Shown piece by piece: positions 3,010 through 59,378 of a stretch of DNA of 64,000 nucleotides. The stretch is taken from assembly GCA_947588965.1 (NCBI GenBank), contig CANQAN010000001.1, positions 1 through 64,000 of the forward strand, in the 5' to 3' direction. Made by a program: the position numbers and the translations under genes. The first letter of the stretch is position 1. The number at the start of each line of letters is the position of its first letter. This stretch comes from an uncultured Helicobacteraceae bacterium (GTDB lineage Bacteria; Campylobacterota; Campylobacteria; Campylobacterales; Helicobacteraceae). The notes below the pieces were generated by a model that was not told the DNA's origin, did no database searches, and worked only from the letters and a program-made list of their open reading frames with translations.

Positions 3010-3639
3010 TTAGTCGCCATAGGCGGTTTTCCATACATTTGGAACAGCATTGGGAATGTTTTGCCCACGCACCGTTGCACGATGTGTGATGATCTTTGAA
3101 ACCTCTTCACTACTTCCTGCAAGAAGAGCCTTTGTAGAGCACATAGAGGCACACATCGGAACTTTTCCCTCTGCGATTCTGTTTTGCCCATACAGACGAT
3201 ACTCCTCTTCACTATTTGTCTCCTCTGGACCCCCTGCACAAAATGTGCATTTATCCATAGAGCCACGACTTTCAAAGAGACCATTTTTCGGAAATTGTGG
3301 CGCACCAAATGGACAAGCATACAGACAATACCCGCAACCAATGCAGGTTTTTTTATCATGCAAGACGATTCCATCGGCACGGATATAGAAGCAATCCACA
3401 GGGCAAACCTGCGCACAAGGCGCATCGGCACAATGCATACACGCCACAGAAACGGCACTTTCCTTGCCCACTTGTCCCTCATTAAGCACAACCACTCTTC
3501 TGCGATTCACGCCCACAGGCAAATGATGCGCCTCTTTGCACGCCACATCACAACCATGACATTCAATGCAACGATTCGTATCGCAATAAAACTTGATTCT
3601 TGAAAAATTTTCAAGATTTGTAGGAATTGACTCACTCAT
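3010..3639 (-). CDS. fdhB: Formate dehydrogenase iron-sulfur subunit FdhB
   Basis: A 209-residue ferredoxin-type beta subunit with four cysteine clusters: CIECHGCDVAC (about 19-29), CMHCADAPCAQVCP, CIGCGYCLYACP and a final CTFC...CASMC pair. These match four [4Fe-4S] clusters forming an electron wire from the FdhA active site to cytochrome b. It has no signal peptide, so it presumably crosses the membrane with FdhA on the FdhA Tat signal, as known for related enzymes. It starts four bases after the fdhA stop codon. Confidence 0.95.
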   Translation of the reverse strand: MSESIPTNLENFSRIKFYCDTNRCIECHGCDVACKEAHHLPVGVNRRRVVVLNEGQVGKESAVSVACMHCADAPCAQVCPVDCFYIRADGIVLHDKKTCIGCGYCLYACPFGAPQFPKNGLFESRGSMDKCTFCAGGPEETNSEEEYRLYGQNRIAEGKVPMCASMCSTKALLAGSSEEVSKIITHRATVRGQNIPNAVPNVWKTAYGD

Positions 3640-3642
3640 TTT

Positions 3643-6477
3643 CTACCTCCCTAATTGCGCTTTTTCAATGCGACACAAACCGCACTTCGTCTCTGGACAA
3701 GCAGAATTGTAATCAAAGCCATAACTGCTGATCATATTAGCAGATTCACCAATCACATAGGGCTTCGTTCCCTCTGGATAGCGATCAAGCCTTGACTCCC
3801 CTTGATCCATACCCGAGAAGTTTTGAGGCAACCAAATGCTGTTATAATCCACGCGCGTTGAAATCTTCGCAGGAACAAGGATTCTGCAGCCATTTGTCCC
3901 ATACACCCAAAGCATATCGCCATTTTTGATGTCCATTTCTGCGGCTTTATCGGGATGGATTTCCACAAACATCTTGCTCTCAACCTCTGCGAGATATTTC
4001 GCACTTCTTGTCTCCGCACCCGTTCCCATATGTGCGACTAAGCGACCACTTAGCATATTAATCGGATATTCCTTGACCCAATCTTTTTCTTTCTGTCGAG
4101 ATTCGTATTTGATATTGGCTCTAAAATGGCTCTTTTTGTCAGGGAAGCTTGGGTATTTATTCACCAAATCTCCGCGCACAGAATGCAAAGGCTCTCTGTG
4201 TAATGGAATCTGATCATACCAATTCCAAACTTTCGCACGTGCCTTTCCATTTCCATAGGGGCAGATTCCTGCTTCCAAAGCCCTTTCTACAAGGATATTG
4301 TTCCCAATTCCTAGCGCAAAGGTACTTCCTGCGACAGCCTCTTTTTCTTCTTCTGTGAGATGAATCCCTAGAGATTCCGCATTTGCAGCACTCACAGGCG
4401 CATGACCGCCCTCATATTTCGCATTAGGCAACGTCCTTGTTGTCAGCATGGATTGCCCATCGGGACTTGTTACACCCCAATTCACGCGGAATCCCATGCC
4501 GCCACGCATAACAGGAATATTGTCATTATACATGACAGGCGTTCCGGGATGCTTATCACTCCAGCAAGGCCAAGGAAGTCCATAATAATCCCCCTTAAAT
4601 GGTCCCGTCCCCTCTAATGTCACCTTGTCAAACAAATGCCAATTTTCTTGATGTGCCTTAAGTCTTTCAGGACTCATTCCCTGCAATCCAATGCTTCTAA
4701 TGCTCTGTGTCAGCTCTGTTGTCGCATCATCTGGCCAGATAAATTTGTCTCTGCCCTTAGATTTTGCAATATCATAGAGTCTCCACTGGAATTTATCCAA
4801 AAATCCCAGTCTCTCGGCTAATCCAAACAAGAATTCCTCATCGGGACGGCATTCAAAGAGTGGCTCCATAACCTTAGAGCGCCATTGATAGCTACGATTT
4901 GTCGCCGCAACAGAACCCGCAGTCTCCATCTGTGAGGCAGCAGGCAGACAATAGAGATTGTCGCTTCTCTCACTGTAAATGGCTAAGTCATTCACATAGG
5001 GATCGACAAAAACCACTAAATCAAGCTTATCCATAGCTTGTTTTTGCAGATTCAACAAAGACACAGTCGTCATGCCTGAACCAATCACAATCAACGCTCT
5101 TAAGGGAGTTCCTGCGTTGTTTGCGAAATTCTCTTCATTTAAGACGCCAAATTTCCAAGTTGAATGTGCATAGCCTGTTTTGCCCATCATTTCTTTGTCT
5201 TTGAAGCGCCCGAGCATCCATTCATAATCCACGCCCCAATGTTTGCAGAAATGCTTCCATGCAGGCTCACCAAGCCCATAATAACCGGGGAGTGAATCAG
5301 CTAAGTTATTCATATCTGACGCACCTTGCACATTGTCATGTCCGCGCAAAATATTCACACCTCCACCATTTTTACCAATATTTCCTAAGAACATTTGTAA
5401 AATCGGCATAATGCGCGTATTGCTCGTACCCACTGTGTGCTGTGTCAATCCTTGATTCCAAATGAGACTTGCGGGTTTTGCTGCTGCCATTTCTTCTGCG
5501 ATGTGTCGGATTTCATCAGCAGGGATTCCGCAAACATCGGCTGCAACTTCTGGAGGGAATTTTTGCGCTTCTGCGATAATCTCCTCATAGCCATAGACTC
5601 TGTCTTTGAGGTATTGCTCATCATAGAGTTTTTTTGCAATGATGTGATTGAGTAAGCCATAGGCAAAGGCAATATCCGTTCCACTGCGGATTCTGTGAAA
5701 TTCATCACATTTTGCTGCGGTTTTTGTAAAACGTGGATCGATGCAAACAAGTTTCGCCCCACTCTCTTTTGCGCGTAAAATATGCACCATAGATACAGGG
5801 TGATTGACTGCGGGATTGGCACCAATGATCAAAATATATTTTGAAAACATCATATCGCCAAGATGGTTTGTCATACCACCATACCCAAATGTATTTGCCA
5901 CACCGGCAACTGTTGGGCTGTGTCAAACTCTCGCGCAATGATCGATGTTATTTGTACCAAAAAATGCCGCAAACTTCCTAATGTAGTAACTCTGCTCATT
6001 TGAGCATTTCGCACTTCCTAGAAACATCACGGCATCAGGACCGCTCTCTTCGCGAATTTTTTGAAGCTGTGCTGCAATTTTATCCATTGCATCATCATAC
6101 TTCGTGCGCACCCATTTGCCCCCTTCTTTAACCAAAGGATAGCGCAATCGTGTCTCGCTACGCGCTCTATCAATCAAATCTGCGCCCTTACAGCAATGCC
6201 CACCTTGTGAAATCGGGTGATCTTGTGCGACTTCTTGGCGTACCCATACGCCATCAACAACTTCTGCTACGATTCCACAACCAACTGAACAATGCGTACA
6301 GATGGTTTTGATTTTTTGGGAATTAGGATACCTTTCTTTGAGCTCTTGTTCTGTTGCTTGGCGCATGATCTTTTGATTGTCAGCTCCTAACGCGACACTC
6401 GCACCAGCTAAGCTCCCAAGAGCAGTCATTTTTAGAAATGCGCGTCTGCTCTTACGCCTTGTTATGGATTCACTCAT
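3643..6477 (-). CDS. fdhA: Selenocysteine-containing formate dehydrogenase catalytic subunit FdhA (in-frame UGA)
   Basis: One 944-residue gene read through an in-frame TGA at 5925..5923, codon 185. The flanking residues are HCARV before and HSPTVAGVANTFG after, the classic active-site context of selenocysteine formate dehydrogenases. A Tat signal (RRKSRRAFLKM, residues 7-17) sends it to the periplasm. Cys60, Cys63, Cys67 and Cys95 ligate a [4Fe-4S] cluster. The rest is a molybdopterin oxidoreductase with a C-terminal dinucleotide-binding domain. It oxidises formate to CO2 and feeds electrons to FdhB and FdhC. Without recoding it would look like two genes (6477..5923 and 5901..3643). selA, selB and selC are not in this window. 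Confidence 0.96.
5895..5925 (-). promoter_or_regulatory. Bacterial SECIS element and UGA selenocysteine codon in fdhA
   Basis: The TGA (5925..5923) is followed after 13 bases by a hairpin with stem TTGCC (5909..5905), loop GGTGT (5904..5900) and stem GGCAA (5899..5895). The spacing and G/U-rich apical loop fit the stem-loop bound by SelB next to the UGA in bacterial formate dehydrogenase mRNAs. Confidence 0.85.
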
Positions 6478-6487
6478 TTTCTACCCT

Positions 6488-6682
6488 TTATTTTGCAACA
6501 GAATAATATAAATCCCATTGCTTTGTCTTTTGATACAGAATCTCTGTTTTTGGGGATTTCCCGCGAACAAGATTCTCACTTGTGCCTTTTTTGCCACAAC
6601 CTGCCAATGCAACGCTTGTACCAGCGATGGCTACGGAGGTTTTCGCAGTTTTCTTTAAAAACTCGCGCCGACTATTCTCCAT
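6488..6682 (-). CDS. Small Tat-signal protein of the formate dehydrogenase operon
   Basis: A 64-residue protein starting MENSRREFLKK: a twin-arginine motif (Arg5-Arg6), a hydrophobic stretch (about 16-28) and Ala-Gly-Cys near residue 29 that could be a lipobox. Small Tat proteins sit at this position upstream of fdhA in Campylobacter and Wolinella. Its molecular role is not established; it may help export or assembly of the FdhAB complex, or anchor it. It starts just after the inverted repeats at 6710-6748 and ends 10 bases before fdhA. Confidence 0.8.
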   Translation of the reverse strand: MENSRREFLKKTAKTSVAIAGTSVALAGCGKKGTSENLVRGKSPKTEILYQKTKQWDLYYSVAK

Positions 6683-6709
6683 ACTAGGAACTCCTTTCTC
6701 TAAAGATTT

Positions 6710-6748
6710 GGGATAATCCCACGAGAATTTTCCTAAAAAACTCTCGTG
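6710..6748 (-). promoter_or_regulatory. Two adjacent inverted repeats inside the fdh operon
   Basis: A 7-bp stem (CACGAGA at 6720-6726 with TCTCGTG at 6742-6748) abuts a perfect palindrome GGGATAATCCC (6710-6720). Both lie between the stop of the TorD-like gene and the start of the small Tat gene. Neither is followed by a clean T run, so an RNA processing or attenuation site is as likely as a terminator. Confidence 0.4.
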
Positions 6749-6751
6749 AAA

Positions 6752-7351
6752 TCACCGATAAATCGTGCTTTCAAACTCTATAAAAGATTCTAAGATCAAG
6801 GCTAAAGACAAATACAATCTTGCATCCTTTCTTGCCTTGATTTCAGCAATCAAACCATAATAGGCATCTTGAATAAATAGAAAAACTTCCTCTGCTAACT
6901 CCTCATTTCCACTCTCTAGCAAATGGCGCATAAATCCAAACAAGAATCCTAAATGTTCCTCTGTTTCTTTGAAGTTTGAAGTTTCAACGCGCACATCGCT
7001 TTTCTTTAGAAGAGTGCGCATTTTCAATAGGGATTCCGCTCCGATACAATTTTCATAATAATGTGAAAGATGCATTCCTACTTGCTTTTCACCAAAGGGC
7101 AAGGCAAAGAGTCGCGAAAACTCCTCCTTGAAATTTGCGATTCCATTATTTTCAAGCTCTGTTTTAAGCATCTCCATGCTCTCTCCTGCAACCTCATTCA
7201 AAGGTGCGCAAAGCAGAATCTCTAGTTGCTCTAACGCAACCTGCAAACGTCCATCCAGCAATTCAAATACAAAGAAACCATTGAAAAAATCATAATATAA
7301 AATGCGCGCACTTTTCACTTGCTCCTGCTCTAATGTGCTAAGATTAAACAT
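6752..7351 (-). CDS. TorD/DmsD-like chaperone for the formate dehydrogenase
   Basis: A mostly helical, acidic protein of 199 residues counted from ATG 7351, which has GGAG six bases upstream; a TTG at 7372 would give 206 residues. Size, composition and position beside a Tat-exported molybdoenzyme fit the TorD/DmsD family of redox-enzyme maturation chaperones, which bind the Tat signal and hold the apoenzyme until cofactor is inserted. The C. jejuni fdh locus has a comparable gene. Its start overlaps the end of the upstream Fe-S gene. Sequence similarity in this family is low, so the call rests partly on context. Confidence 0.7.
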   Translation of the reverse strand: MFNLSTLEQEQVKSARILYYDFFNGFFVFELLDGRLQVALEQLEILLCAPLNEVAGESMEMLKTELENNGIANFKEEFSRLFALPFGEKQVGMHLSHYYENCIGAESLLKMRTLLKKSDVRVETSNFKETEEHLGFLFGFMRHLLESGNEELAEEVFLFIQDAYYGLIAEIKARKDARLYLSLALILESFIEFESTIYR

Positions 7352-8915
7352 TTTGTACTCCAGAAGCCCCAAACATCACTTTCACCTTGCAATTTGGACA
7401 GCATTGCAATGTCCTTAACTTCCTAGGATCACTCTGAAAAGACGCTCCAAGCATTGATACAACCTTTTCAATGGATTTCTTCGTAGAAAATGCCTCCCCA
7501 CACTCCACGCACAAAAAGGGCGCATCTTTTGCGATTTCTCTGCTTTTGAAATATTGTGCGTTTAATTCCAAACCATCACGATGTAATTCTATCACATTTT
7601 CTGGACATGAAGTCACACAATAGCCACAAGTTGTACAAAGCGAAGCATTGAAGCGTAAAGAAAAATCATCGCTCCTTGCAAAAAGCGCATTTACATTGCA
7701 AGCTCCAACGCAAGAAAGGCAAAGTGTGCATTTATCGGAATCCACATTGATGTTTCCATAAAAAACAGGATTCTCTCCCTCTTGCACTATGCTTCTTGCA
7801 AGTCCATAATCTCTCTCCTTTATCATAAACTGCAAACGTTGCGCAAAGGATTCTCTAAAGGGCTTGTGAGTGCGATTCTTGTAGAGATAGACTTCTAATT
7901 CCAAAGATGATGTTGCAAGAGAGGCAAGGTGACCTAGGGACTCTTTGTTGATTAAAATGATTGCGTCTTTTTTGTAGATTTGCTGTGTAATATGGTTGAT
8001 AAACTGCATAGGTGCGCTTAGGGATTCACCAAAGACAAACAACGCATTCCCACTTGTCTGTATAATGCTTAAGAGGTCATTTTCATTCAACATTAGCAAA
8101 TTGGGCAAGATAAGGGGCAGGATATTTTCTGGTAAGATAAATTCCTGTGAGCTTAACGCAATATAGTCTTGCAAAGAACACAAAAACACTCTTGTGTGTT
8201 GATAAAACTCAAGTATTTCATTGAATGCTTCTTTTGGTAATTCTTCATATTCTAAGCAATTTGTCGGACACACGCCCACACATGCTCCACAATGCACACA
8301 ATCAACATGCGAAAAAACAAGCTCCATTAAATGCCCATTTTCGGTTATACCAAAAGTCGGACAAACTTCTGCACATTTAGCACAATATCTCTCACGTCTG
8401 TGATGATACTGACAATAATCCTCTCTGTAGGCAATCATTTCCTTGAAGTGATAATCCCCAAGATTATCTTGCAAAGTCTGCAAAAGTGCCTTAGGATTCT
8501 GAAAATCTGCGACACTATAAACGCCTTTAAAGCGCAGGAGGGATTCCTCATTAACAAACAAAACGGCTTGTGAAAATGTTACAATCTCTCCATTTGTGCA
8601 CACAGCACTCAATCCCCCCAATTGTCCGCTGAAATTTTCCAGCAAAGAAATATCAAGCAAAACCACTTCAAAGGATTCTTGCGCTAAGGTCGCAAACTCC
8701 TGCACTTCTTGTGGAATTGTGTCCTTTTCTAAAGCATAGAGAATGACAATTCTAGAATCCACCTGAACTTGCAGTTTGTCCTCTAGGACAAAGTCATCAA
8801 CAATCTCTTGAACTTGATTGAGGATTTTGAGCCGTTCATTTAGAGCTGGAGAATCTCTGTTTAATAACAGACTTCCTAAGGGCAAAATATTTGTATGCAG
8901 GGAATCCATTGTCAT
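7344..8915 (-). CDS. Multi-cluster 4Fe-4S ferredoxin-type protein, first gene of the fdh operon
   Basis: A 523-residue protein with two pairs of ferredoxin motifs: CAKCAEVCP (178-186) and CVHCGACVGVCP (206-217), then CTLCLSCVGAC and CTTCGYCVTSCP in the second half. Two further Cys pairs near the C-terminus (CVECG and CCPNC) look like a zinc or rubredoxin-like knuckle. It has no signal peptide or membrane segments, so it is cytoplasmic. The N-terminal 160 residues show no motif I recognise. Similar genes accompany fdh loci in Campylobacterota, but the redox partner is unknown. It could deliver electrons or clusters during FdhA maturation. The start MTMDS has only a weak Shine-Dalgarno sequence. 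Confidence 0.8.
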   Translation of the reverse strand: MTMDSLHTNILPLGSLLLNRDSPALNERLKILNQVQEIVDDFVLEDKLQVQVDSRIVILYALEKDTIPQEVQEFATLAQESFEVVLLDISLLENFSGQLGGLSAVCTNGEIVTFSQAVLFVNEESLLRFKGVYSVADFQNPKALLQTLQDNLGDYHFKEMIAYREDYCQYHHRRERYCAKCAEVCPTFGITENGHLMELVFSHVDCVHCGACVGVCPTNCLEYEELPKEAFNEILEFYQHTRVFLCSLQDYIALSSQEFILPENILPLILPNLLMLNENDLLSIIQTSGNALFVFGESLSAPMQFINHITQQIYKKDAIILINKESLGHLASLATSSLELEVYLYKNRTHKPFRESFAQRLQFMIKERDYGLARSIVQEGENPVFYGNINVDSDKCTLCLSCVGACNVNALFARSDDFSLRFNASLCTTCGYCVTSCPENVIELHRDGLELNAQYFKSREIAKDAPFLCVECGEAFSTKKSIEKVVSMLGASFQSDPRKLRTLQCCPNCKVKVMFGASGVQNV

Positions 8916-21471: not shown

Positions 21472-22415
21472 TCATAAAATTTCACAATACAATGCAGTCT
21501 CTCCACTCACATTGTCATCAATAGGCTTAATCACTCTAAAAGAATAGCCAAGATTCCAAGATTCCAGCATGGGTTTAATGTTAAAAAAATCTTTATAGCT
21601 GTGATACAGGCTAATAAGCATTGCAGGTTTCTGCTCCATAATCGTATTTTGCGCACCTTTTAAAAATTCTTGCTCAAAGCCCTCAATATCAACTTTAATG
21701 AAACCAACTTCTATTTTATGCTCCTCCACAAAAGAATCCAAAGGAATAATCTCCACCTCTTCATAATCCCCATTTGATGGAAGCACGATACTTGAACCAG
21801 CCCCTTGCGTTGAGATCTTCGTCATTTCCCTTTTAGAGCCTAATCCTTTATAAACAGGGATAATCCTCTCTGCTCTGTTGAGTTGAATCGTTTGCAACAT
21901 GGCCTTATAATTAGAATCCACAGCCTCAAAGGCATAGACTTTTTTGTCTGTGTATTCTTGTAAAATGAGCGCGCTATCTCCGATAAAAGCCCCCGCGTCT
22001 ATAATGTCTTTTTGTCGCAATCTCTCTAAATGAAAAATACACCCCCCCCCCGCTGATTCAAGCCAAGATGATACCAAAACACGCTGACAGAAAATTGCGC
22101 AACAGGTAAATAATATCCATCATAATAGGCTAAATTGGGCATGATATGAAAGATATTTGGATAGAATTCCGTTTGGATTCTATGGAGCATATCAATTTCT
22201 TGCGCGTTGAGATTCGTAATGGGTTGTCGTTGAAGTATCGCAGACTTTAATCGTGTCAGCACACGATAAATCGTCTCTATGCTCTCTTTATCTAAATTTT
22301 GCGTTAAAATTATGAGTTTTTCTAAAAAGCTAGAATCCTCTAGCATTTCTTTGACAAAATCACATTGAATCTGCCAATTTGCCACCAAAGAAAAATTATG
22401 CTCCGCATTTTCCAT
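21472..22415 (-). CDS. FkbM-family methyltransferase, phase-variable, currently OFF (frameshift at G10)
   Basis: The gene begins at ATG 22415 (GAGGGG upstream) and codes about 122 residues before a run of 10 G (22051..22042). In the present state the frame then hits TAG at 22028..22026. The rest (22041..21472) is open in the next frame and carries the FkbM domain: DAGAFIGDSALIL (SAM binding) and EVGFIKVDIEGFEQEFLKG. Eleven (or eight) G would join them into a 314-residue protein. FkbM methyltransferases often O-methylate sugars on surface glycans; the exact substrate is unknown. It lies alone between the two-component system and DAHP synthase. Confidence 0.88.
22042..22051 (-). repeat. Poly-G(10) contingency tract in the FkbM gene
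   Basis: Ten G on the coding (minus) strand. G10 is out of frame; G11 or G8 restores the full protein. Tracts of this length in Campylobacter and Helicobacter change at high rate by slipped-strand mispairing. Confidence 0.9.
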
Positions 22416-52225: not shown

Positions 52226-53146
52226 TTAAGGGATTCTTTCTAGCACTTTTTTAAATTCTCTGGCAAGATAATAACTCATAAGCGGAGGAACGGCATTGCC
52301 TATTTGCGCATAAGCCGCCCCATTGCTTCCATAAAATATAAAATCATCCGGAAAGCTTTGAATTCTCGCACATTCGCGAACACTTAATCTCCTATGTAAA
52401 TGCGGATGCGGATGAATCACAGCACCCCCACCCCTACTGCCACGTCCTGTAATAGTTGGTGCTGGTTTATCCCACGATAAAATCCTATTTCCAACATATC
52501 CATTGATATTAATTTTGTGTCGCGATCCTGTGTGATTAGGTATATTTTCACTATATTCTAAGGGTAAATCGCCGATAGCGTCTTTGAGTGTTTTTGGAAT
52601 TTTTGTTTGTTTTTTTGGAAAATTGACCTCATTTTTTATGTCATTTCTCCTGCCTATAATAATCACGCGCTTACGATTTTGTGGGACATTATAATCACTT
52701 GCATTTAAAATTGCGAATTTAAGTGTGTAGCCACATTTTTCAAAACTTGGCAAAATTTTCTCATAAAAATGCTCTTTGAAAATCTTTCCGCTTTGGATTC
52801 CAGCCACATTTTCTACCAAAAAATATTTAGGTTGTTTGAGTGCTAGGATTCTTGCATATTCCAAATAGAGCTTATTGTAACTAGAATTTAAATTTCTATT
52901 TTTGCCATTTGCAATTGTAAAGCCAAGGCATGGAAAACCGCCGATTAAAATATCAGCATCGGGAATTTCATCGGCTCTTATAGAATAAATATCTTTGCAT
53001 AAAATGTGATGATTTATATTGTTCGCGTAGCTCAAACAGGCTTCTTTGTCAATATCATTGGCAAAAACAATTTCAAATCCAGCCTTAATAAAACCTAAAT
53101 CAAGCCCACCACAACCGCTAAATAAACTAATCACTCTAGGTTTCAT
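52226..53146 (-). CDS. DNA (cytosine-5-)-methyltransferase
   Basis: A 306-residue m5C methyltransferase: motif I SLFSGCGGLDLGF (7-19), motif IV GGFPCLGFT with catalytic Cys73, motif VI ENVAG, motif VIII QNRKRVIIIG, and motifs IX-X near the end (RLSVRECARIQSFPDDF, QIGNAVPP). Motif IV reads PCLGFT rather than the usual PCQGFS. The target domain contains KPAPTITGRGSRGGG. It overlaps the upstream endonuclease by four bases. Confidence 0.9.
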   Translation of the reverse strand: MKPRVISLFSGCGGLDLGFIKAGFEIVFANDIDKEACLSYANNINHHILCKDIYSIRADEIPDADILIGGFPCLGFTIANGKNRNLNSSYNKLYLEYARILALKQPKYFLVENVAGIQSGKIFKEHFYEKILPSFEKCGYTLKFAILNASDYNVPQNRKRVIIIGRRNDIKNEVNFPKKQTKIPKTLKDAIGDLPLEYSENIPNHTGSRHKININGYVGNRILSWDKPAPTITGRGSRGGGAVIHPHPHLHRRLSVRECARIQSFPDDFIFYGSNGAAYAQIGNAVPPLMSYYLAREFKKVLERIP

Positions 53147-54126
53147 ATCAACTCTTTAAAATTTTTATCAAATTCAAAAAATAAATTTTCTAGTTCTAAA
53201 AACACTTCACGTTTTATGTTTTGATTTGTAAAATACTTAAAATAAGCTGTGTGTAATTTGTGATCAAATTGATTAACATACTGCATAACGCTATTTTCAA
53301 GATATGAAAAATCAAGGATAATTTTTTGTTTGCATTCTTTGATGAGGGCATTTCTATCAATCCTAAGTGAATTTCCTTCGTAACGATTGATGAGGTTTAA
53401 AAAACTTTCTTTATTTTGGCTGTATTCTTTAAAGATTTTTACAATTTCAGCACCAGAAAAAAAGTAAAGTTCCATTTTTTCATCATCTTTAATGCTTAAT
53501 AGCAAATCATCGCTATAAATAAATTCCACCATTTGATTGAATTTTTCTCTAAAAGCATTAAAGCTAGAAAGGGTATCTATAAGTCCTAAAAGCTTTAAAA
53601 ATTGCGGCTTACTTCCAATTCCAGCACCATCGCTAGATTTTCTCTCGCTCAAATAATTATCCACTTTTAAAGAGTCAAATAAAACTCTTTTTTCAAAACT
53701 GCCCATATTGATTTCAGTATTCTTTTGTATGAGCGTTTTGACACTCAAAGAATAATGGTTTGCAAAAATGATGTCCGCTTTTTCGCGACGATTTGAAGCG
53801 ATTTTATCTTTTACATTTAAGAAATAATCACTCACTTCAAAATTAAGATTTTTCCTCTGTTGCGTATCGGCAACTTCTCCATTGAAAATAATAGCCAACA
53901 AATCCTCAAACACTCTTGCACTTGTCTTTCTCTTCGCTACCTCATCAGAACTTATAAAATGATAGAGATAGTTATAGAGATAAAGAGTGTAAAATTTATT
54001 TTTATTATCTTGCAAATGATTGAAAAAATGATAAACCCCGCTAATGCTAGAAAGATTTGTGCTAATGATGTGCTTGTCTCTTAAATAATCAGATATAATT
54101 TTTATCGTTTGTAATTCTTTAAACAT
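53143..54126 (-). CDS. Type II restriction endonuclease paired with the m5C methyltransferase
   Basis: A 327-residue AT-rich gene product with a probable PD-(D/E)XK site: Glu74 region, REKADIIFANHYSLSVKT with Asp118, Ser128 and Lys130. It ends in the ATG of the methyltransferase (ATGA overlap), the usual R-M coupling. The family and site are not recognised. The pair interrupts the ccp-nrf region and lies close to the nrfA 3' end. Confidence 0.72.
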   Translation of the reverse strand: MFKELQTIKIISDYLRDKHIISTNLSSISGVYHFFNHLQDNKNKFYTLYLYNYLYHFISSDEVAKRKTSARVFEDLLAIIFNGEVADTQQRKNLNFEVSDYFLNVKDKIASNRREKADIIFANHYSLSVKTLIQKNTEINMGSFEKRVLFDSLKVDNYLSERKSSDGAGIGSKPQFLKLLGLIDTLSSFNAFREKFNQMVEFIYSDDLLLSIKDDEKMELYFFSGAEIVKIFKEYSQNKESFLNLINRYEGNSLRIDRNALIKECKQKIILDFSYLENSVMQYVNQFDHKLHTAYFKYFTNQNIKREVFLELENLFFEFDKNFKELI

Positions 54127-56787: not shown

Positions 56788-59378
56788 TTAATCCCTCAAA
56801 AATCCATACTCATAGATCTTTTTTTCAATTTTCTTAGCAAGGACTTTGAGAGCGACATTAAGCTCCCCAATCAAAGTCTTATAATGCTCATCTTTAGTCT
56901 TGCTAGGAGGATTCATTTTGCCCTTTTCATTGCGTCCTTGGAATAATTCCCTAATTTCATAGAGTGCGATGTTTGGATTGTATTTTTCCTCATTAAATTC
57001 TCTTGTGTGATAGTAGCGATAAATCTCTCTCCCCGCAGCAAAGACTCCTTTTGCCTCATCTGAAAATTCCAATCTCTCAAACTCTCGCTCTTGTTTAATA
57101 AGTACCTCCTCTTGCGCACTGGGCTTGACTTTGCCTTCAATAAAATCACTCATAAAGTGGCTCATAAAACTCTCCTTAGCTCCTATTTCTTTCTCTCTAA
57201 AGGGAATGAAGTGGTTCACCCCCCCCCCCCGCAGAGATGGCACTATGGCTTGTGATTCTGTTTTGAGGATGAAAGAGTGTGAAAGCAAGGCAATCGCTTT
57301 TAAATTCCTTATCACATTCCCACTCTTTTTTAGGAGAGAGAAACTGATCTCTGTCATTAATCCAATCTGCAGGAATCGCCTTGCGCACGGTAAAATAAAC
57401 ACTGCATGGAATGAGGTTGTTTGTATGAATACAGATATTTCTACCAATCACAGTATCCTGTTTTTGAGAAATATAAAGCAATGTATTTTGTTGAAAATCT
57501 GGACCGGGAGTTACCATAAATGCAAGCTCTGCATCCTCTTTTTCTTTTATATTGTCCTTATGTCGCTTGACCCAATAGTTAATGCTATTTTTTTCATCTG
57601 AATTTGAATAAAAATTCTTAGTATAGAGAAAACGTCCCTCCTCTTTATTTTCTTTATAGACATCATAGATATCAAGCTCTATCCTCTCAAGCTTTTTTTA
57701 ACACTTGTATCCCATATCAAAAACCCGATGGGAAAAGACACTCTCACATTATCAAAGGTATAAGAAGGAGCTATGAATCCCCCCTTAAATTCCGCCTTAA
57801 AATGCGTTCTAAACTGAATGAAATTTTGAGAATTGATATATTTGAGTGTTGAAAAACTTGCCAAAATACAGCCATCAAGTTCTTTAATGATTTTCATAAA
57901 AAATTGCGCAAACAGCTCGTTACTTGCAGGTCCTAAGGATTTTTTATATTTTTCCACCATTTTATGGGCTTTTGCGACCAAATTCTTAGTTGTACTTTTG
58001 GATTCCTTTTCCTTTGACATTTCATATTTTGAAGTTGCCTCCGCATAGGGTGGATTGATAAATACAACAAGCCTCTTTCTCTTTTCACTATCCCTAATGA
58101 TTTCTTGAAGGCTTTCTGGAAGTGGTGATTTTCTGCACTTCTCACAACCCTCAACAGCAAACTTAGAATCCCCATGCTCCCTACAAGGCTCATCAAAAAA
58201 TTCATCGTTTAAAAAGTCAAATTGAAAAACATTGCGCTCCAGCAAATTCCCACTCTTTTTTGCGATCTCTTGGCAAACAATCACATCAGCCTTATCCAAA
58301 GTGGAGGCATAGATATTGCTCGTGCTAAGCCCTATCAAAAGATTGCCCGTCCCCGCTGCAAGATCCCAAATATAATATTCATCTTGCCAATCCTCACCTA
58401 AGGATTTTGCAAGATATTCTTGAGCCTTCCTCACCCAAATTTTAGGAGTATAAAATGCCCCTTTACGTTCTCTAATATCGGGCTCGACAAGTAAATCACG
58501 TCTCTTTAAAATATCATCCCAAAATTCCTCTTTTGGTGGTCTTTCATAGAGATTCCAAAAGCTCTTATGGGCTTCTTGGTTGTCTTTGAATGTTACCGTT
58601 ACAGAAGAATACTTTCCCGCCCACAATGTTTTGATTTTGCCATATTGATAATGATCGGATTCTAAAACAGCATAAAGTTCCTGAATAATCGTCTTATTTC
58701 CCTCACTCAATAAATCGGCCAGATAGAAATCTCCCACTTCAACATTGAATTTTTTGCCATTTCCCAATTAACCGCTATGCTCTCTTTGACATACTTAAGC
58801 CATTTGTGATAGACGCGCACAAAATTATCCTTATTAATTTTCTCTTTTGTGATTACATTTGAGTTCAGATTCTTTTTAATAAATGCTCTCAATTCTCCCG
58901 TATCTTTAGAGTATTCAAAAGGATAAGCCTTACTTAAAAGCTGCTTGTCTTTAATCTGTTTATAGAGATAGACAAAAGTCTCACTTGTCTTATCGCTTGG
59001 TGTGACATTCCAATTCATAGCATTTTGATTCAAAATCTCCTCAATCTCGCTATCAAAGGGCAAAAAGATCATCTTGTAAGCATCAAATGCGCCGATATAA
59101 CGGGGACGATGAGATTCCCTTTTCTTGTATTTAGCTATGGTAATTATGAGTTGCGTGAGGGATTGCTCAAGATCACTTTCCTTCTGCTTCGCTTCAGCCC
59201 AAAAGAGATTTTGATTGACTACGCTTTTGAGTAGCCCATAGTCCTGCCAAATGCAAAAATCAATCTTATTGGATTCAAACTCACATTTGAAATTTTCAAA
59301 ATAAAGCTCACGGATTTTTTGTTTAAGGGTTGCTTCATTGAGCTTTGGAAGTTCTTTGATAATTTGTATGTCATTCAT
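56788..59378 (-). pseudogene. Type IIG restriction-modification enzyme gene with three frameshifts (Cj0031-like)
   Basis: The gene starts at ATG 59378. Part 1 (to 58707) has a PD-(D/E)XK nuclease core with WAEAKQKES. Part 2 (to 57679) is an N6-adenine methyltransferase: GAFYTPKIWV (motif X), WDLAAGTGNLL (motif I), INPPYAEA (motif IV). Parts 3 and 4 run to 56788. Frame breaks lie at A6 (58755..58750), A7 (57699..57693) and G12 (57230..57219); one A more, one A more and one G fewer would give one 863-residue protein. The poly-G break is a normal phase switch; the two A-tract breaks may be decay or sequencing errors. Domain order and the poly-G context resemble C. jejuni Cj0031. Confidence 0.85.
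57219..57230 (-). repeat. Poly-G(12) contingency tract in the Type IIG gene
   Basis: Twelve G on the coding strand; G11 or G14 would join the frame ending SAISAGGG to the frame beginning VNHFIPF. The present state is OFF even apart from the upstream breaks. Confidence 0.9.

What the first reader, a model, noticed from the sequence alone, without database searches (positions are those of the whole stretch)
56788..59378. Type IIG R-M gene broken at G12 and at two A tracts
Seen: four pieces in alternating frames that join into one 863-residue enzyme by +1 at A6, +1 at A7 and -1 at G12. Known: poly-G switching of Type IIG enzymes occurs in C. jejuni Cj0031. The A-tract breaks could be real decay, slow switches, or indel errors in the assembly. 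If they are errors, the gene is a clean phase-variable regulator of the methylome.
Basis: partly seen in the sequence, partly recalled or inferred. Interest (0 to 1): 0.6.

Follow-up and report, generated by a model that had tools for sequence, protein, structure and literature searches.

The report
Locked-off poly-G restriction enzyme gene
A Helicobacter-type bacterium carries a DNA cutting-and-marking enzyme gene with the kind of G-run that lets such genes flip on and off, but two further reading-frame breaks that do not look like sequencing errors most likely keep it switched off for now.

Summary
On the minus strand (59378→56788) four pieces read 0/2/1/2 and join into one ~863-residue enzyme; the frame changes lie at or beside A6 (58755-58750), A7 (57699-57693) and G12 (57230-57219). 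Relatives with one open frame exist, and a model of one folds like the Type IIG/IIL enzymes DrdV, BpuSI and MmeI. In ~165 kb of this genome's coding DNA, ~350 A/T tracts of 6-9 sit inside intact frames; the only A/T-tract break a frame-change scan found was the A7 here. Most likely this is a formerly phase-variable enzyme, now locked off. The G12 position is a real contingency site: a genome of another genus carries G11 there in an intact 998-aa frame, a second carries G10 out of frame. The A7 break falls at the methylase/recognition-domain boundary, where relatives are split or carry a poly-C (C7-C11) whose length goes with fused or split frames. The window holds a new, inactivated member of a known kind (compare Cj0031, JHP1272); the recurrent tracts within one enzyme family are the more interesting result.

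The parts
56788..59378 (-). Disrupted single-chain Type IIG-like restriction-modification gene, about 863 residues when read through
   Evidence: homologues
58707..59378 (-). Piece 1: N-terminal PD-(D/E)XK-like nuclease region (D in IDFC 59267-59253, ExK in WAEAK 59204-59187); visible ORF 223 aa, homologous up to about 58750
58750..58755 (-). A6 tract at or near frame change 1 (homology allows 58761-58734)
57679..58767 (-). Piece 2: N6-adenine methylase domain (motif I AAGTGN 58368-58336, motif IV NPPY 58059-58036), ORF 362 aa
   Evidence: (PF02384)
57693..57699 (-). A7 tract at frame change 2, at the methylase/recognition-domain boundary where relatives are split or carry poly-C
57219..57696 (-). 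Piece 3: first part of recognition domain; no ATG/GTG/TTG in frame before 57517
57219..57230 (-). G12 tract, frame change 3, in a 7-residue insertion before the conserved (V/I/T)NHFIPF motif
56788..57218 (-). Piece 4: C-terminal 143 residues, ending KIYEYGFLRD, conserved in relatives

Best explanation
This is a Type IIG-like enzyme (nuclease, N6-adenine methylase and recognition domain in one chain) whose gene carried, and still carries, a hypermutable G tract in a loop of the recognition region that once switched it on and off. Two further one-base-type frame changes, at or beside A6 and A7, have since inactivated it. Translation from the ATG stops after 223 codons, so the gene is off whatever the G-tract length, until those changes revert or the gene is replaced by recombination. 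Shown: the anatomy, the frames, open relatives, and a poly-G at the same residue in an intact relative. Inferred: that the A-tract changes are real in the organism, that they came after the switch arose, and that no enzyme is made.
For: Open relatives of 825, 871 and 998 aa and 57 long open frames among named relatives. G11 in frame at the same residue in G024, G10 out of frame in G023. Poly-G 9-mers in this genome number 230 overlapping matches, against about one run expected by composition, so long G runs are general here. In the control, 257 A/T6, 70 A/T7, 21 A/T8 and 3 A/T9 tracts lie in intact coding segments and the only A/T-tract break flagged is the A7 here, which argues against base-calling error. 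Signs of relaxed constraint: 25 of 237 conserved positions deviate, rank 60 of 62, and the terminal branch is 0.61 against a median of 0.12.
Against: No reads and no second isolate were available. Catalytic motifs are intact and no other stop or frameshift exists in 2.6 kb, so loss must be recent. The intact G024 enzyme deviates at conserved positions about as often (27 of 244), so the relaxed-constraint signal is weak; the long branch may reflect sparse sampling. The frame-change scan misses breaks that leave a start codon nearby; it did not flag this gene's own A6 and G12 breaks.
Confidence: 0.72

Rival explanations
1. The A6 and A7 breaks are assembly or sequencing indels; the real gene is open except at G12 and is a clean poly-G on/off switch.
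For: Both A-tract changes have the same sense, as under-called homopolymers would. The genome is a 21-contig draft. Catalytic motifs are intact.
Against: About 350 A/T 6-9 tracts in intact coding frames of the same genome and one A/T-tract break flagged, the A7 of this gene; even A9 tracts lie in intact frames. Homology does not pin frame change 1 to A6.
Confidence: 0.13
2. The A7 break is a natural gene boundary: the enzyme works as a split system (nuclease-methylase chain plus separate recognition chain), as in several relatives.
For: The break lies exactly where G010, G013, G015 and G018 have two genes and where genus-g2 relatives have length-variable poly-C.
Against: No ATG, GTG or TTG precedes 57517 in the downstream frame. 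Split relatives such as G013 and G018 start the second gene with ATG at the boundary. The upstream A6 break already cuts off the nuclease part.
Confidence: 0.06
3. Ribosomal or transcriptional slippage at the A tracts restores the frame, giving low-level full-length enzyme gated by G12.
For: Both A-tract frame changes are of the -1 kind, which slippage at A runs can produce (general knowledge).
Against: Neither site is an efficient slippery heptamer in its frame by inspection. The A tracts are absent from relatives, so no conserved site exists. Two slippage events plus the right G length would be needed at once. A7-A9 are common elsewhere in coding frames.
Confidence: 0.04
4. The A tracts are slow contingency switches in their own right.
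For: Mononucleotide tracts can slip; H. pylori JHP1272 has two homopolymer tracts in one Type IIG gene (PMC3936762).
Against: A6 and A7 are ordinary in this genome (257 and 70 A/T runs of those lengths in intact coding frames). PMC3936762 considers switching likely for tracts longer than 8 bp.
Confidence: 0.05

Closest known systems
Cj0031 (Campylobacter jejuni NCTC11168), poly-G phase-variable Type IIG enzyme
   Same: Single-chain Type IIG architecture; a poly-G in the latter part of the gene sets on or off (G9 on, G10 off; PMC4889913); most homologues lack the tract.
   Different: Cj0031 is 1243 aa, tract at bp 2573 of 3732; here about 863 aa, tract at about bp 2149 of 2591, plus two further frame breaks. 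No direct sequence comparison was made.
JHP1272 and HP1353-HP1354 (H. pylori), Type IIG with two homopolymer tracts
   Same: More than one frame break in one Type IIG gene; the first tract switches activity, the second changes specificity (PMC3936762).
   Different: There both breaks are at homopolymer repeats that switch; here two of three are at short A tracts of lengths common elsewhere in the genome.
G024 homologue (L145/L163; chromosome size as reported for the Helicobacter cetorum whale strain, PMC3866246; identity inferred from size only)
   Same: Same family; pure G tract at the same residue; intact 998-aa frame at G11.
   Different: No A-tract breaks; carries an extra linker after the methylase domain; lies in another clade, so its tract probably arose independently.
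DrdV (7LO5), BpuSI (3S1S), MmeI (5HR4)
   Same: Best fold matches to the model of an intact homologue.
   Different: 11-14% identity; no Pfam, NCBIfam or PADLOC model covers the family beyond a weak N6_Mtase or MTase_II hit.

Membership tests
Type IIG (single-chain restriction-modification) enzyme | N-terminal nuclease motif, N6-adenine methylase motifs and recognition domain encoded in one chain | tested here: met
   D...ExK, AAGTGN and NPPY motifs conserved; intact relatives are one frame. In the window copy the frame is broken.
Type IIG (single-chain restriction-modification) enzyme | Fold of known Type IIG/IIL enzymes | tested here: met
   Model of L049 (mean pLDDT 84.5): top Foldseek hits DrdV, BpuSI, MmeI, E 1e-9 to 4e-8; VIA Z 14-17, mostly over the methylase part.
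Type IIG (single-chain restriction-modification) enzyme | Cleavage and one-strand methylation activity | not testable with these tools
   Needs biochemistry or a methylome.
Phase-variable (poly-G contingency) gene | G/C tract of 8 or more inside the frame whose length sets the frame | tested here: met
   G12 at 57230-57219 between pieces 3 and 4.
Phase-variable (poly-G contingency) gene | Tract length differs between isolates or reads | tested here: inconclusive
   One genome per species is held; in two related genomes of another genus the same site has G11 and G10.
Phase-variable (poly-G contingency) gene | Some tract length gives a full open frame | tested here: not met
   As assembled, two other frame breaks remain whatever the G length.
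Assembly-error artefact | Homopolymer breaks elsewhere in the same assembly | tested here: not met
   One A/T-tract break flagged, that in this gene, against about 350 A/T 6-9 tracts in intact coding frames. The scan misses breaks that leave a nearby start codon.

The most novel reading that the evidence does not exclude
The methylase/recognition-domain junction of this enzyme family is a true modular switch point: frame or tract changes there (poly-C in one Helicobacter genus, A7 here, outright gene splitting with inserted toxin-antitoxin pairs elsewhere) toggle the enzyme between a fused form and a split form with a different activity, rather than just turning it off.
Probability: 0.1. Interest if true: 0.6.

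Novelty: new member of a known kind. Interest (0 to 1): 0.36.

Why it matters
The window gene itself is an ordinary event: a contingency gene that has been locked off. The comparison around it matters more. One Type IIG family, poorly covered by the profile libraries searched, carries G/C tracts at three separate sites in different Helicobacter lineages, one of them at the domain boundary and one in a loop of the recognition region. That makes it a natural test of where frame switches can be placed in an enzyme that must not cut without marking. It also warns that calling such genes phase-variable from one tract alone overstates what can switch.

Tried and rejected
Plasmid searches found only a broken copy on H. 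pylori pUM157 and distant homologues; the pUM157 copy has no long G/C tract. Sequence search of the PDB gave nothing. Pfam, NCBIfam and PADLOC gave only weak methylase hits. None of 79 named relatives has a G/C run of 8 or more inside the gene, which at first suggested the tract was unique; the family-wide pattern search then found the same site in G023 and G024. I considered that large insertions in some relatives (L057, L062) fall at the poly-G site; they lie about 50 residues later. The gene is not next to nrfHA in relatives, so synteny gave no history beyond probable lateral acquisition.

Full report
Observation. The finding is right in sequence and coordinates. The gene runs on the minus strand from an ATG at 59378 (AGGA 6 nt upstream) to a stop at 56788. 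Frames 0, 2, 1 and 2 follow one another; the tracts at the changes are A6 (58755-58750), A7 (57699-57693) and G12 (57230-57219). The G12 run is far beyond chance (about 0.0003 expected in the window). Scoring read-through proteins with X at each junction against a family profile built without the window shows that homology fixes the changes only to 58761-58734, 57699-57681 and 57249-57216. The A7 and G12 assignments are natural; the A6 assignment is plausible only.

What it is. The read-through protein is 50-53% identical to intact enzymes in the same genus (G007 825 aa, G005 and G004 871 aa) and related to many more in Campylobacterota, Bacteroidota and Spirochaetota. It carries a D...ExK nuclease signature, methylase motifs AAGTGN and NPPY, and a C-terminal recognition region. 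Profile libraries hardly know the family. A model of the intact L049 homologue (mean pLDDT 84.5) matches DrdV, BpuSI and MmeI best, which supports Type IIG architecture. This genome has only this copy, and the gene is not next to nrfHA in relatives, so it was probably acquired laterally.

Are the A-tract breaks errors? The assembly is a 21-contig draft of 1.62 Mb. In the window plus 120 kb of the same contig, intact coding segments contain 257 A/T runs of 6, 70 of 7, 21 of 8 and 3 of 9. A frame-change scan flagged the A7 of this gene, one G10 tract, and three places with no tract (probably ordinary overlapping genes, not checked further). The scan needs the absence of a nearby start codon, so it is not exhaustive: it did not flag this gene's own A6 and G12 breaks. 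Still, two under-calls in one gene and no other A/T-tract break found nearby is an unlikely pattern for a homopolymer error. I put assembly error at about 13%.

Is the poly-G a real switch? The genome is rich in long G runs: 230 overlapping 9-mer matches where about one run is expected. A pattern search for poly-G followed by the HFIPF codons in 121 genomes of the taxonomic family found three: the window, G024 and G023. G024 has G11 inside an intact 998-aa frame. G023 has G10, out of frame, in a copy whose N-terminal part is lost. A remote paralogue in G018 (27% identity) also has G12 at what looks like the equivalent loop. In the tree the window falls outside the g2 clade that holds G024, with weak support for its own place, so the two tracts probably arose independently. 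The window tract also sits in a 7-residue insertion that G024 lacks.

More tracts in the same family. Of 121 genomes 55 have a homologue at E 1e-20. In genus g2, seven loci carry a poly-C exactly at the methylase/recognition-domain junction: C11 (822 aa) and C8 (835 aa) read through; two C7 copies, C9 and C10 are split; one further C7 copy with a different flank stays in frame through the junction. L192 has G12 at a third site before LPxxLQEIL, out of frame. The window's A7 break lies at the junction site. In G010, G015, G018 and G012 the gene is split there and a Fic/DOC toxin-like gene with a small partner ORF sits between the halves; in G013 the halves are adjacent without it.

Mechanism. 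As assembled, translation from the ATG gives 223 residues (the nuclease part only), and piece 3 has no usual start codon before 57517. The G tract therefore cannot switch the enzyme in this genome. The best reading is a once switchable enzyme now locked off. Weak signs of relaxed constraint agree: deviations at conserved positions rank 60 of 62 and the end branch is long, though the intact G024 copy deviates as often. Intact catalytic motifs and the absence of further lesions say the loss is recent.

Compared with what is known. Poly-G control of a Type IIG enzyme is established for Cj0031 (PMC4889913), and two-tract Type IIG genes, including specificity switching by the second tract, for JHP1272 and HP1353-HP1354 (PMC3936762). 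The window gene is a new, inactivated member of that kind. I did not find the recurrent-site pattern in the papers searched, but that library holds only part of the literature and only two Type IIG papers were read.

Noticed in passing
L164-L168, L170, L171 (genus g2 relatives), junction at about base 3065 of each oriented locus: A poly-C of C7-C11 sits exactly between the methylase and recognition parts of this enzyme; C8 and C11 read through, C9, C10 and two C7 copies are split, one C7 copy with another flank reads through.
   Followed up: partly
L007:3173-3741, L008:3120-3694, L010:3089-4197, L028 about 6297-6665: A Fic/DOC-family toxin gene with a small upstream partner ORF (and in L010 also a YafQ-family toxin) lies between the two halves of the split enzyme gene.
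   Followed up: partly
22042-22051 (genes 21472-22077 and 22026-22415): A C10 tract at the overlap of two ORFs, the downstream one an FkbM-type methyltransferase: a likely second contingency gene in the window.
   Followed up: no
52226-54126: A cytosine-5 DNA methylase gene with an overlapping unknown 327-aa gene on the other side of nrfHA; possibly a second restriction-modification system, not beside nrfA in relatives.
   Followed up: partly
L192 oriented base 2665 (G096): G12 at a third site of the same enzyme family, out of frame there.
   Followed up: partly
L137 about 4001-6894 (H. pylori plasmid pUM157): An unlisted, broken homologue of the enzyme on a mobilizable plasmid, in three pieces without long G/C tracts.
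   Followed up: partly
L057 about 6550-7500, L062 about 6600-7300: Large in-frame insertions in the C-terminal linker of the enzyme, with sequence that resembles a DUF559/Vsr-like endonuclease by eye (not tested).
   Followed up: no
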